From Gamarada debralockiae (taxonomy: Eukaryota; Ascomycota; Leotiomycetes; Helotiales; Hyphodiscaceae), in NCBI GenBank assembly GCA_002803225.1, contig NXFV01001467.1, positions 1 through 24,375 of the forward strand: a stretch of DNA of 24,375 nucleotides, in the 5' to 3' direction. The position numbers and the translations under genes are program-made. Below the pieces are notes generated by a model. The model ran no database searches. It saw only the letters and a program-made list of their open reading frames with translations, and was not told where the DNA came from. Of the stretch, positions 3,029 through 6,393 are shown piece after piece (the first letter of the stretch is position 1; each line of letters opens with the position of its first letter).

Positions 3029-3904
3029 TCACCAGGCCAATTCTTTCGCAGCACCAGGCGCCTTGCTGACGGATGACTCGTCATTCTTCCTCTTCCCTCC
3101 CTTTCCAAGCCCCTCTTCTCCTTGCTCTTGCTCATGCTCCATCAACTCCAGATTCAATCCCCAAATCTTGACCTCCTCCTCAACGATCTTCTCCCACTTA
3201 ATAACCAAAGGATGCGCCCCCGCAACACCCGGAAACAGCACCTCCCTCCCCTCTCTCTCCCCCGGAACCTCAAACCTCCAAACCCCATCCTCACCCCACC
3301 ACTCCTTCCCAAACACATTCTTTGTCCCCAACTCCGCCTTCGCATCCTCAAAAAACTTCTCCACCCTCACTCTCTGCACTTCCCACTCCTCGTTCCCCTT
3401 ATTCGCAGGATCGTTGGCCGCAGTTTGCACAGCATGGTAGACCCCCTCAAGAACACCCAAGATCTTTCCGATTCGTAATCCAAGTGTGGCTCCAAGACTG
3501 TAGCCCTCGTCGAAGCCCTTCTGCACACTCTCTGCTTTGCCTCTTGTAACACCGTCTCGATAGCCTTCTGTCTCGTGCTTCTCTTTTAGGCGCGGGATAT
3601 CAGACCACTCTGCATTGCCCCCAGACGTTTCTCTTCTCTCTAAAATATCTCTATCGTGGTGATGTTCCTGGGGGAAGGTAGGAGATCCCGGCGCAGAGCC
3701 AAAGACGTCGTCGAAATCATCGTTGACATGGACGGAGACCGCCGGTCCTCTTTCCTGTGCTGCTACCTCTGTAGAATCAACAGTGTATGTGCGCCCCGCC
3801 ATCATAATTGTAGAATCATCATGTATCATGCTTTCGTACCTCCTACCAAAATCCAGCTTGAAATGTACCATTATCAAAATTCCACAACTTTTTTTGTTCA
3901 ACAA
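3029..3904 (-). CDS. YAE1: Yae1 family protein (ABCE1/Rli1 Fe-S cluster adaptor)
   Basis: Single-exon frame of 291 residues. In yeast, Yae1 with Lto1 recruits the cytosolic iron-sulfur machinery to the ribosome-recycling ATPase Rli1/ABCE1. The hallmark is visible: from about residue 114 to 154, ten glycines stand in a four-residue register (GYRDGVTRGK, then GFDEGYSLGATLGLRIGKILG), one register position being Ser126. This is the deca-GX3 motif of the family. Upstream, NDDFDDVFGSAPGSP (61-75) matches the acidic N-terminal motif common in fungal homologues. The C-terminal part is charged and less conserved. The start is uncertain: in-frame ATGs at 3904, 3829, 3805 and 3802 are all possible, and the later ones avoid an unusual N-terminus. 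The protein is longer than the yeast one, as usual for filamentous fungi. It is a stand-alone gene, with a tRNA gene upstream on the other strand. Confidence 0.92.
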   Translation of the reverse strand: MLNKKSCGILIMVHFKLDFGRRYESMIHDDSTIMMAGRTYTVDSTEVAAQERGPAVSVHVNDDFDDVFGSAPGSPTFPQEHHHDRDILERRETSGGNAEWSDIPRLKEKHETEGYRDGVTRGKAESVQKGFDEGYSLGATLGLRIGKILGVLEGVYHAVQTAANDPANKGNEEWEVQRVRVEKFFEDAKAELGTKNVFGKEWWGEDGVWRFEVPGEREGREVLFPGVAGAHPLVIKWEKIVEEEVKIWGLNLELMEHEQEQGEEGLGKGGKRKNDESSVSKAPGAAKELAW

Positions 3905-4066
3905 GATCTTATCTTATCTCGCTTAATCTAAAATTTCGTCAAAATCCTGTCGTGACTCAAAACGTGATCACGCGCCGCACTTACCCTTCGCTCGCCCGTT
4001 CCGTTCCCTTTCATGTATCAAAATAAGGATTTTCTTGTTCAAACAAGTCCTTGTGGCATGCTAAAC

Positions 4067-4205
4067 GCGCCGTTTTGGTAGTAAGTTAATAAACTAACGA
4101 TCTCAACGCGTCATACACATGGTACTAATATGATAAAGGTGGTTAACCAGTCTGCTTCCCAAGTGGAAATAGCAGGAGACGCGAGTTCGAACCTCGCACG
4201 GCGCA
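4067..4205 (+). tRNA. tRNA-Gly(CCC) with two introns, one in the D-loop
   Basis: The 5' acceptor GCGCCGT (4067-4073) pairs perfectly with ACGGCGC (4198-4204), followed by discriminator A. The T-arm is GCGAG TTCGAAC CTCGC (4181-4197). The anticodon stem TCTGC/GCAGG encloses a loop with anticodon CCC (4158-4160), which decodes GGG glycine codons. A 9-nt intron (4162-4170) sits at the canonical site after position 37, and its GGAA can pair with loop TTCC, as in other pre-tRNAs. The D-arm is interrupted after A14 by a further 58 nt (4081-4138). Removing it gives stem TGGT/ACCA and loop AGTGGTTA, a perfect D-arm with the invariant GG. The spliced product is 72 nt with all stems closed. A TTTTT terminator follows at 4215. 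The fold is derived by eye. A pseudogene with an insertion is the alternative reading. Confidence 0.85.
4081..4138 (+). other. mRNA-type (GT-AG) intron-like insert in tRNA D-loop
   Basis: This 58-nt segment starts GTAAGT, carries TACTAAT at 4123-4129 (candidate branch A at 4128, ten nt before the end) plus an ACTAAC at 4093-4098, and ends AAAG. These are the donor, branch and acceptor features of the protein-gene introns in this window, and the length fits too. Because the following exon also begins GT, the junction is ambiguous by up to two bases, and the GT-AG choice is one of the allowed ones. It splits the tRNA between A14 and G15, where the tRNA endonuclease does not normally cut. Confidence 0.7.
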
Positions 4206-4214
4206 TTGTTTCTC

Positions 4215-4219
4215 TTTTT
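4215..4219 (+). terminator. Pol III terminator of tRNA-Gly
   Basis: A run of five T lies 10 nt after the tRNA discriminator base, the usual RNA polymerase III stop. It suggests that the gene is, or was, transcribed by Pol III. Confidence 0.75.
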
Positions 4220-5691: not shown

Positions 5692-6393
5692 ATGAGGACT
5701 ACACTTTTCACGATCCTCGCAGCGGCAGGGAGCATTGTTACGGCACAGAATTTCAACGGGGAGCCTTCTTGTGCTGTAAGTCGTACCACTTTCCAACCTC
5801 CATCTCTAACCAAGCAATTCAACGCTTCCATTCAATTCATGGCTCCTCACATATTACTCCCTCACCAATAATCAACAACTAACATTTCCTTTCAACAACA
5901 GATCCCCTGCCTCACATCCGCAATCTCAGTAGCAGGCTGTCAACTCAGCGATCAGGCTTGTCAATGTGGCAGCGGCTTCTCCTCCATCCAAGCAGCCGTA
6001 GCACCGTGCCTCCTCTCCGCCTGCAACCAATCTGATCTCGCCGTCGCTGCATCCAACGGTCTCGCCCTCTGCTCTGTCTTCTCCGCTTCCCTTGCGTCAG
6101 CCTCCGCCGTCACGACTACCTCCTCAGCTGCAAGCGTTTCAAGCACATCTGTTGCCACTACCACATCTTCCATCCCTGTCTCTACAACTTCCGTTACGGC
6201 TGTTACGACCTCTGTTGCGGCGACGACAAGTGCTCCCTCAACTAGCAAGGCGAGCTCCAGCAGTGCGGCGAGCAGCGCGTCGCAATCGAGCTCGAGTGGT
6301 CCGGCACCAGTCTCAACGAATGCTGCGCCTGCTATAATGGCTGGAATGGGTGGATTGCTTGGATTGGGAGCTGCGTTCGTTGCTGCGCTGTAA
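5692..6393 (+). CDS. CFEM-domain GPI-anchored cell-surface protein
   Basis: Two exons, 5692-5775 and 5902-6393, with a GTAAGT...CAACAG intron, encode 191 residues. Residues 1-18 form a signal peptide (MRTTLFTILAAAGSIVTA). The CFEM domain (about 22-86) has all eight cysteines at 27, 31, 41, 48, 50, 64, 69 and 85. Asp45 lies in the LSDQACQC stretch, where studied CFEM proteins place the haem-iron ligand. Residues 88-165 are a Ser/Thr-rich, presumably O-glycosylated stalk. The C-terminal 20 residues are small and hydrophobic (MAGMGGLLGLGAAFVAAL), preceded by Ser/Asn/Ala, as expected for GPI attachment. CFEM proteins act at the membrane or wall in haem/iron capture, wall integrity or host interaction; which applies here cannot be told. 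The intron splits the first Cys from the rest of the domain. The gene is convergent with the SDR gene downstream. Confidence 0.95.

What the first reader, a model, noticed from the sequence alone, without database searches (positions are those of the whole stretch)
4067..4205. tRNA-Gly(CCC) whose D-loop is split by an mRNA-type intron
Seen: exact removal of 58 nt (4081-4138) restores a D-arm TGGT/AGTGGTTA/ACCA. With the 9-nt anticodon-loop intron also removed, the result is a 72-nt tRNA with perfect acceptor, D and T stems. The 58-nt insert has GTAAGT, TACTAAT ten nt from its end, and a terminal AG, like the protein-gene introns here. Established: nuclear eukaryotic tRNA introns sit after position 37 and are removed by tRNA endonuclease and ligase. 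D-loop introns are known from archaea, some red algae and nucleomorphs, and mRNA-type introns occur in U6 and U3 RNAs of some fungi. Inference: the spliceosome removes this intron from a tRNA precursor, so one transcript would need two splicing machineries. I know of no established fungal example, but could not search.
Basis: partly seen in the sequence, partly recalled or inferred. Interest (0 to 1): 0.93.

Follow-up and report, generated by a model that had tools for sequence, protein, structure and literature searches.

The report
tRNA gene with an mRNA-type intron
In what is likely a fungus of the order Helotiales, a predicted glycine tRNA gene is interrupted, besides a small insert at the usual tRNA intron place, by a 58-base insert bearing the splice marks of a messenger-RNA intron, so the spliceosome would likely have to cut it out before the tRNA could fold.

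Summary
Removing 4081-4138 (58 nt, GTAAGT...TACTAAT...AG) and the 9-nt anticodon-loop insert turns 4067-4205 into a 72-nt tRNA-Gly(CCC) with perfect acceptor, D and T stems; ARAGORN at default names it only once the 58 nt are gone. New: (1) a diverged second copy (C173) keeps the same insert and its splice signals, though its stems have begun to decay; (2) a tRNA-like gene on C719 reads best as Leu(CAA) if two GT...CTAAY...AG introns and an anticodon intron are removed, although ARAGORN calls it Phe; (3) my scanner needed such introns in 2 of 13 tRNA rows and found nothing in shuffled or reversed controls. No bulge-helix-bulge was seen. Best reading: a spliceosomal intron in a Pol III tRNA precursor that also carries an endonuclease-type intron. 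Splicing is inferred: no RNA data, no relatives' DNA, and only a partial search for intronless Gly(CCC) genes. In ten paper searches I saw no report of a spliceosomal intron in a nuclear tRNA.

The parts
4010..4066 (+). 5' flank shared with the C173 copy (44 of 57 bases identical, with gaps on the window side of the alignment), with a TATA-like stretch near 4014-4026; predicted upstream Pol III promoter region
   Evidence: promoter role inferred
4067..4080 (+). tRNA-Gly(CCC) exon 1, positions 1-14: acceptor 5' strand, T8, T9, D-stem 5' strand, A14
4081..4138 (+). 58-nt mRNA-type intron in the D-loop: GTAAGT at the start, TACTAAT at 4123-4129, terminal AG
4131..4142 (+). TGATAAAGGTGG, best A-box-like match of the unspliced gene (11 of 12), straddling intron end and exon 2; weak evidence
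   Evidence: function inferred
4139..4161 (+). tRNA exon 2, first part: rest of D-loop and D-stem, anticodon stem 5' strand, anticodon CCC at 4158-4160, A37
4162..4170 (+). 9-nt insert at the canonical tRNA intron position (after 37)
4171..4205 (+). tRNA 3' part: A38, anticodon stem 3' strand, variable loop, T arm with B box GTTCGAACC (4185-4193), acceptor 3' strand, discriminator A73 at 4205
4215..4219 (+). run of five T just downstream: Pol III terminator-like (the C173 copy has six)
   Evidence: function from general knowledge

Best explanation
Window 4067-4205 is a predicted tRNA-Gly(CCC) gene whose D-loop is interrupted after position 14 by a 58-nt insert carrying GTAAGT, TACTAAT and a terminal AG, and the spliceosome would likely remove that insert while the tRNA endonuclease and ligase would likely remove the separate 9-nt insert after position 37. 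Inferred order: RNA polymerase III transcribes the gene (B box, T-run and an upstream TATA-like stretch are present); the spliceosome acts first in the nucleus, because the tRNA endonuclease contacts the D-arm, which cannot form normally until the 58 nt are gone; endonuclease and ligase then finish the molecule. The 3' end of the intron together with exon 2 may serve as the A box, which would have freed the D-stem from the usual promoter constraint. Shown: the sequence anatomy, the restored cloverleaf, the second copy with conserved splice signals, the absence of a bulge-helix-bulge in the registers tested. Not shown: transcription, splicing, charging.
For: Exact GT-AG excision restores a complete tRNA-Gly(CCC), which ARAGORN at default finds only after removal. 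That excision scores best of 48 and is the only one that folds once a branch site is required. Its motif combination is enriched in this genome, 271 against 68. The C173 paralog keeps GTAAGT, the block GGTACTAATATG and the final AAG, while the intron as a whole is identical at 45 of 58 ungapped sites; exons differ at 8 of 81 sites against 26 of 115 in intron plus upstream, p = 0.022 (exon against intron alone, p = 0.055). Five of the 8 exon differences break (3) or turn to GU (2) C173 stem pairs, so at most 3 fall on the window branch, where 9.2 would be expected if it were neutral (P = 0.019; equal rates assumed). A separate tRNA-like gene on C719 gives a Leu(CAA) when two GT...CTAAY...AG introns and an anticodon intron are removed; 2 of 3000 shuffles of its interior reached its score, none with a Leu(CAA) loop. 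In 304,728 held bases 13 tRNA rows were found, 11 without and 2 with mRNA-type introns; the same bases reversed and 20 block shuffles gave none. No bulge-helix-bulge at the junctions. Precedent in fungi: U3 and U6 genes with spliceosomal introns (PMC5832005, passages).
Against: No RNA evidence. The A box is split; the one proposed across the junction (11 of 12) is weak: about a 14% chance by my hand estimate, given that AG and GG are fixed, and C173 has an 11-of-12 match elsewhere in the gene. If TFIIIC used it in the normal geometry, transcription could start inside the intron and miss exon 1. The D-stem lacks G10 and the usual 11-24 pair. The C173 paralog has three mismatched stem pairs and looks like a decaying copy. 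The clear U6 gene of this genome has no intron. A genome screen for TACTAAY...AG...B-box found 34 sites against 73 for the backward control, so no excess. [quoted passage not shown] The C719 case is weaker: ARAGORN at default calls it tRNA-Phe(aaa) with one long intron, its Leu anticodon stem has two GU pairs and is absent from the predicted minimum-energy fold, without a branch-site filter other excisions tie, and its contig could not be checked for origin.
Confidence: 0.66

Rival explanations
1. It is a dying tRNA gene: an insert with intron-like ends landed in the D-loop, or a once-spliced gene lost expression, and no functional tRNA is made from it now.
For: The paralog C173 has lost pairs 5-68, 6-67 and 28-42. 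The A box is split and the D-stem is atypical. A review supposes short D- or T-arm insertions in one of many synonymous genes to be pseudogenes (PMC4090602, passage).
Against: The window copy has perfect acceptor, D and T stems and intact B box, T-run and anticodon region, with at most 3 of the 8 exon changes on its branch where 9.2 are expected if neutral. A chance insert would hardly bring GTAAGT, TACTAAT and AG at exact places.
Confidence: 0.2
2. The 58 nt are removed by the tRNA endonuclease, as with non-canonical archaeal, red-algal and nucleomorph tRNA introns.
For: D-loop or D-arm introns of that kind exist outside fungi (PMC4090602 passages; PMC3978253 passages).
Against: No bulge-helix-bulge: central helix at most 2 of 4 pairs and outer helix 2 of 4, in three registers (the same test was also weak on the 9-nt canonical insert, so it is not decisive). 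GTAAGT, TACTAAT and AG are not needed by an endonuclease yet are kept in both copies.
Confidence: 0.05
3. The tRNA-like sequence is part of a Pol II transcript, for instance a non-coding RNA beside the divergent Yae1 gene, and is spliced there without yielding a working tRNA.
For: A Yae1 gene lies close by on the other strand (frame 3029-3913), so a Pol II promoter may be near.
Against: T-runs follow both copies; similarity between the copies covers only the tRNA and 57 bases upstream; the 3.1 kb around the C173 copy has no significant Yae1 match.
Confidence: 0.06
4. Assembly error or chance resemblance.
For: The genome is fragmented (1112 contigs).
Against: A second copy on another contig carries the same insert at the same place with 84% identity; no such case arose in reversed or shuffled controls.
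Confidence: 0.03

Closest known systems
Spliceosomal introns in fungal U6 snRNA and U3 snoRNA genes
   Same: A short structured non-coding RNA gene interrupted by a GT-AG intron with a fungal branch site; U6 is a Pol III transcript
   Different: U3 and U6 were named in 2017 as the only small structured RNAs known to be often interrupted by an intron (PMC5832005 passages); neither is a tRNA nor needs the tRNA endonuclease. The clear U6 gene here has no intron; U3 was not looked at.
Canonical nuclear tRNA introns after position 37 (tRNA endonuclease and ligase)
   Same: The gene's 9-nt insert sits at that place; 6 of the 11 plain tRNA rows have 11-19 nt inserts there
   Different: The 58-nt insert sits in the D-loop and carries mRNA splice signals
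Non-canonical tRNA introns of archaea, Cyanidioschyzon and nucleomorphs
   Same: Introns in the D-arm and at other places, sometimes together with a canonical one (PMC4090602 passages)
   Different: Those of archaea and Cyanidioschyzon are linked to bulge-helix-bulge motifs, those of the Guillardia nucleomorph are 3-24 nt long; here no such motif was found and GT...branch...AG signals are present
Spliceosomal introns in nuclear rRNA genes of ascomycetes (recalled)
   Same: mRNA-type introns in a non-coding structural RNA of the same fungal phylum
   Different: rRNA is a Pol I transcript with no tRNA-type processing

Membership tests
Spliceosomal (U2-type) intron | 5' splice site near the fungal consensus | tested here: met
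   GTAAGT in both copies
Spliceosomal (U2-type) intron | Branch site 6-36 nt before a 3' AG | tested here: met
   TACTAAT, 9 nt before the end in the window copy; kept in C173. Range from PMC5832005 (passages)
Spliceosomal (U2-type) intron | Signal combination typical of introns of the same genome | tested here: met
   271 matches against 68 for the backward pattern; in the window itself a stricter regular expression found this one on the + strand and one on the - strand
Spliceosomal (U2-type) intron | Removed in vivo through a lariat by the spliceosome | not testable with these tools
   No RNA data
Functional nuclear tRNA-Gly(CCC) gene | Cloverleaf with paired stems and anticodon CCC | tested here: met
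   Only after excision: 7/7, 4/4, 5/5 (one GU), 5/5
Functional nuclear tRNA-Gly(CCC) gene | Usual D-stem identity (G10, pyrimidine 11 with purine 24) | tested here: not met
   T10-A25 and G11-C24 in the spliced form; rule recalled
Functional nuclear tRNA-Gly(CCC) gene | B box and Pol III terminator | tested here: met
   GTTCGAACC at 4185-4193; T5 at 4215-4219
Functional nuclear tRNA-Gly(CCC) gene | A box at positions 8-19 | tested here: inconclusive
   Split by the intron; the best match is 11/12, displaced to 4131-4142
Functional nuclear tRNA-Gly(CCC) gene | Expressed and charged | not testable with these tools
   No RNA data
Bulge-helix-bulge tRNA intron | 4-bp central helix between two 3-nt bulges at the junctions | tested here: not met
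   At most 2 of 4 pairs in three registers

The most novel reading that the evidence does not exclude
Spliceosomal introns have entered several tRNA genes of this fungus (tRNA-Gly(CCC) before its duplication, and twice in one tRNA-Leu(CAA)), so that making these tRNAs depends on both the spliceosome and the tRNA endonuclease, and in the Gly gene the intron's 3' end has taken over as the polymerase III A box.
Probability: 0.33. Interest if true: 0.93.

Novelty: new variant of a known kind. Interest (0 to 1): 0.86.

Why it matters
Textbook knowledge keeps two intron-removal systems apart: the spliceosome for mRNA and a protein endonuclease and ligase for tRNA. A tRNA precursor that needs both would show that the spliceosome can act on a very short Pol III transcript with a 14-nt first exon (plus leader), would couple translation to spliceosome activity, and would mean that tRNA gene finders can miss or misname such genes in fungi: ARAGORN missed the window gene, and the passages that I saw on tRNAscan-SE 2.0 describe a noncanonical-intron search for archaea. 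It can be tested directly by tRNA sequencing.

Tried and rejected
Rfam at gathering cutoff on the window: no match; at E up to 1 on three loci (L031, L009, L063): two weak matches, both on C719 and below cutoff, one to a plastid 3'UTR element that to me resembles plastid tRNA-Ser and one to the T-arm of tmRNA. I considered reading C719 as tRNA-Ser because of that; by eye I found no 5' partner for the anticodon stem, and discriminator A fits Leu rather than Ser (recalled rule), so Leu(CAA) is preferred, as a candidate. ARAGORN's own reading of C719 is tRNA-Phe(aaa), 223 bases.

Two other GTAAGT...TACTAAT sites with similar spacing (C32, C229) resemble each other and did not look tRNA-like by eye; a third (C133) neither. 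Pattern TCCCA...GTTCRA was too loose (599 matches, control 388, about 100 listed). The pattern was mis-built (it does not even fit the window) and its zero says nothing. Pattern TCCCAA...GTTCGANNC gave 63 sites against 65 in the control: the window, 20 fetched (ARAGORN: 19 without a tRNA, 1 = C719), 42 not fetched. The intronless-spacing pattern gave 131 sites against 89 in the control, about 100 listed, with no flank fetched on its account (a few sites are shared). A BLAST-type search with the 72-nt mature form found only the window and missed even C173, so it is insensitive. An intronless Gly(CCC) gene elsewhere is therefore not excluded. The Gly(UCC) pattern gave 4 sites against 5 in the control and would not fit the Gly(UCC) gene that the Rfam search found on C362. 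The tRNA family search scored only 63 of 1952 candidates, so the tRNA set is incomplete; my scanner in turn missed some genes that ARAGORN names, such as that on C362. A scan of viral contigs for a related gene found nothing.

Papers: ten searches, of which searches listed only part of the papers that fitted (20 of 162, 20 of 35, 20 of 196, 6 of 9). Seen as passages: PMC4090602, PMC13149111, PMC11782384, PMC5832005, PMC3695527, PMC3978253, PMC5499181, PMC8450103, PMC4033280; the others only as listings. In what I saw there was no report of a spliceosomal intron in a nuclear tRNA. The U6 intron survey (PMC4829304) is not held.

Full report
What is there. Bases 4067-4205 contain a tRNA-Gly(CCC) gene in pieces. 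The 58 nt at 4081-4138 begin with GTAAGT, hold TACTAAT at 4123-4129 and end in AG. Taking them out gives an 81-nt form and, with the 9 nt at 4162-4170 also out, a 72-nt tRNA with 7/7 acceptor, 4/4 D, 5/5 T and 5/5 anticodon-stem pairs (one GU) and anticodon CCC; the predicted minimum-energy fold of both spliced forms is a cloverleaf, that of the unspliced gene is not. ARAGORN at default finds nothing in the unspliced gene and tRNA-Gly(ccc) in both spliced forms; at a lowered threshold it gives the unspliced gene a poor tRNA-Val(aac) reading. I tried all 48 GT...AG excisions of 30-130 nt; three gave any cloverleaf in my scoring, and GTAAGT to 4138 scored best, 20.5 against 19.5 for the next, which uses GTAGTA at 4078 and the same AG. 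Asking also for a 5'-site motif and a branch site left two candidate introns and one cloverleaf, the same one. GTAAGT...TACTAAT...AG has 271 matches in the 54.3-Mb genome (nested ends counted apart) against 68 for the pattern read backwards, so it is an intron-like signature here.

Where it is. The window is one whole contig (C711) of a genome of 1112 contigs. On the other strand the open frame 3029-3913 encodes a Yae1 protein (PF09811). Of 175 relatives 120 were listed, most without a name; the named ones include Stipitochalara, Sclerotinia, Botrytis and Monilinia. Stipitochalara is in the Helotiales; the placement of the others is recalled. Species and strain are unknown.

A second copy. A similarity search found one other place, C173:14252-14391, 84% identical. 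It carries the same insert (60 nt) at the same place and the same 9-nt insert. Against the 3.1 kb around it, similarity covers 4010-4206 only, that is 57 bases upstream plus the gene. Exons (9-nt insert included) differ at 8 of 81 sites, the intron at 13 of 58 (two gap bases aside), the upstream part at 13 of 57, gaps aside. Exon against intron plus upstream: p = 0.022; exon against intron alone: p = 0.055. In the intron, GTAAGT, GGTACTAATATG and the final AAG are unchanged. The C173 copy has mismatches at pairs 5-68, 6-67 and 28-42 and two pairs turned to GU, and ARAGORN accepts its spliced form only at a lowered threshold. It looks like a copy in decay. Since those five changes belong to C173, at most three exon changes fall on the window branch, where 9.2 would be expected if it too were neutral (P = 0.019; equal rates on both branches assumed). 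The intron is older than the duplication.

A second tRNA of another kind. One of the 63 anticodon-loop/B-box matches lay in C719:10-232, minus strand. ARAGORN at default reads it as tRNA-Phe(aaa) with one long intron. Its ends pair as in a class II tRNA. In my scoring, with splice-signal filters, the best form removes GTAAGC...TTCTAAC...TATAG (56 nt, after position 27) and GTACGA...TACTAAT...CCCAATAG (47 nt, after 44), plus a 41-nt insert after 37. The product has the Leu(CAA) loop CTCAAGA, a five-pair anticodon stem with two GU pairs, and A73. Without the branch-site filter other excisions tie at the same score. In 3000 shuffles of the interior with the ends kept, 2 reached the score and none with a Leu(CAA) loop. 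The 41-nt insert folds into a hairpin that begins within the anticodon, but the minimum-energy fold of the whole form does not show the anticodon stem. I treat it as a candidate, weaker than the window gene; its contig could not be checked for origin, a DNA search found no second copy, and it ends 9 bases from the contig end.

Control for the method. A scanner that allows plain tRNAs, anticodon introns and up to two GTRNG...CTRAY...HAG introns was run over all 304,728 bases held, overlapping loci included: 13 distinct rows, 11 of them plain or with inserts of 11-19 nt after position 37, and 2 (the window gene and C719) with mRNA-type introns. The same bases reversed, and 20 shuffles in 100-base blocks, gave no tRNA of either kind. 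The loci were gathered by tRNA- and intron-related searches, and the scanner misses some genes that ARAGORN names, so 2 of 13 is not a genome rate. A genome screen for TACTAAY...AG...B-box gave 34 sites against 73 for the backward control, with no excess; 30 of the 34 were cut out as loci, of which the window gene and one other (L105) passed a loose T-stem and acceptor test and only the window gene passed the scanner.

Mechanism. The junctions show no bulge-helix-bulge (at most 2 of 4 central pairs; the test is also weak on the 9-nt insert, so it is not decisive), whereas both copies keep all spliceosomal signals, so the spliceosome is the likely agent for the 58 nt. The 9-nt insert sits where tRNA endonuclease introns sit. 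The endonuclease subunit Sen54 was reported to contact the D-arm (PMC4090602 passage), so I infer that the spliceosome acts first. Transcription: B box and T-run are intact. The A box in its normal place is split; the best match in the unspliced gene is TGATAAAGGTGG at 4131-4142, 11 of 12, made of intron end plus exon 2, while the spliced form has none above 10 of 12. In C173 the homologous place matches at only 9 of 12 by hand count, but C173 has an 11-of-12 match elsewhere, so such matches arise by chance; given the fixed AG and GG I estimate one insert in seven would do as well. If the A box at 4131 is used, exon 1 is free of A-box constraint, which would explain a D-stem (T10-A25, G11-C24) that pairs perfectly yet lacks G10 and the usual 11-24 pair. 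A difficulty is that the start site must then lie some 75 bases before the A box; the conserved upstream stretch with a TATA-like part may set it. [quoted passage not shown]

What is known. [quoted passage not shown] A review places non-canonical tRNA introns in archaea, a red alga and nucleomorphs (PMC4090602 passages), another adds an intron at 27/28 in permuted tRNA genes of the alga Ostreococcus (PMC3978253 passages), and a 2026 review describes tRNA splicing as independent of the spliceosome (PMC13149111 passages). In ten full-text searches of the open library I saw no spliceosomal intron in a nuclear tRNA (four of them listed only part of what fitted); most subscription papers are not held.

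Limits. No RNA data, no related genomes, an incomplete tRNA list (63 of 1952 candidates scored) and a partial search for intronless Gly(CCC) genes (42 of 63 sites not fetched). The clear U6 gene of this genome (C507) is not interrupted; a second, borderline U6 match (C1066, 44 bits, not reported) was not looked into. The splicing claim is an inference from sequence.

Noticed in passing
G000 C719:10-232 minus strand (L063): Candidate tRNA-Leu(CAA) best explained by removal of two mRNA-type introns (56 and 47 nt) and a 41-nt anticodon intron; ARAGORN reads it as Phe(aaa).
   Followed up: partly
G000 C173:14252-14391 (L009, L032): Diverged second copy of the tRNA-Gly(CCC) with the same D-loop insert but three mismatched stem pairs.
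   Followed up: yes
window 4010-4066 and C173 upstream: 44 of the 57 bases upstream of the window copy are shared with C173 while further flanks gave no match at E 0.001, perhaps promoter.
   Followed up: partly
window 3029-3913, minus strand: Yae1-like protein frame, divergent from the tRNA gene, its upstream frame end about 150 bases away.
   Followed up: no
G000 C63:51500-52603: Run of tRNA genes that looks mitochondrial.
   Followed up: no
G000 C362:32728-32810 (L025): tRNA-Gly(UCC) with an anticodon-loop insert and, by eye, two mismatched acceptor pairs.
   Followed up: no
G000 C68:96979-97126 (L030): 148-base weak tRNA match (33 bits) that ARAGORN names Arg(tcg) with a long insert.
   Followed up: no
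G000 C507:132-234 and C1066:53003-53125: U6 snRNA without an intron on C507; a longer borderline U6 match on C1066 only.
   Followed up: partly
window 5872-6390: CFEM-domain protein exon (PF05730).
   Followed up: no
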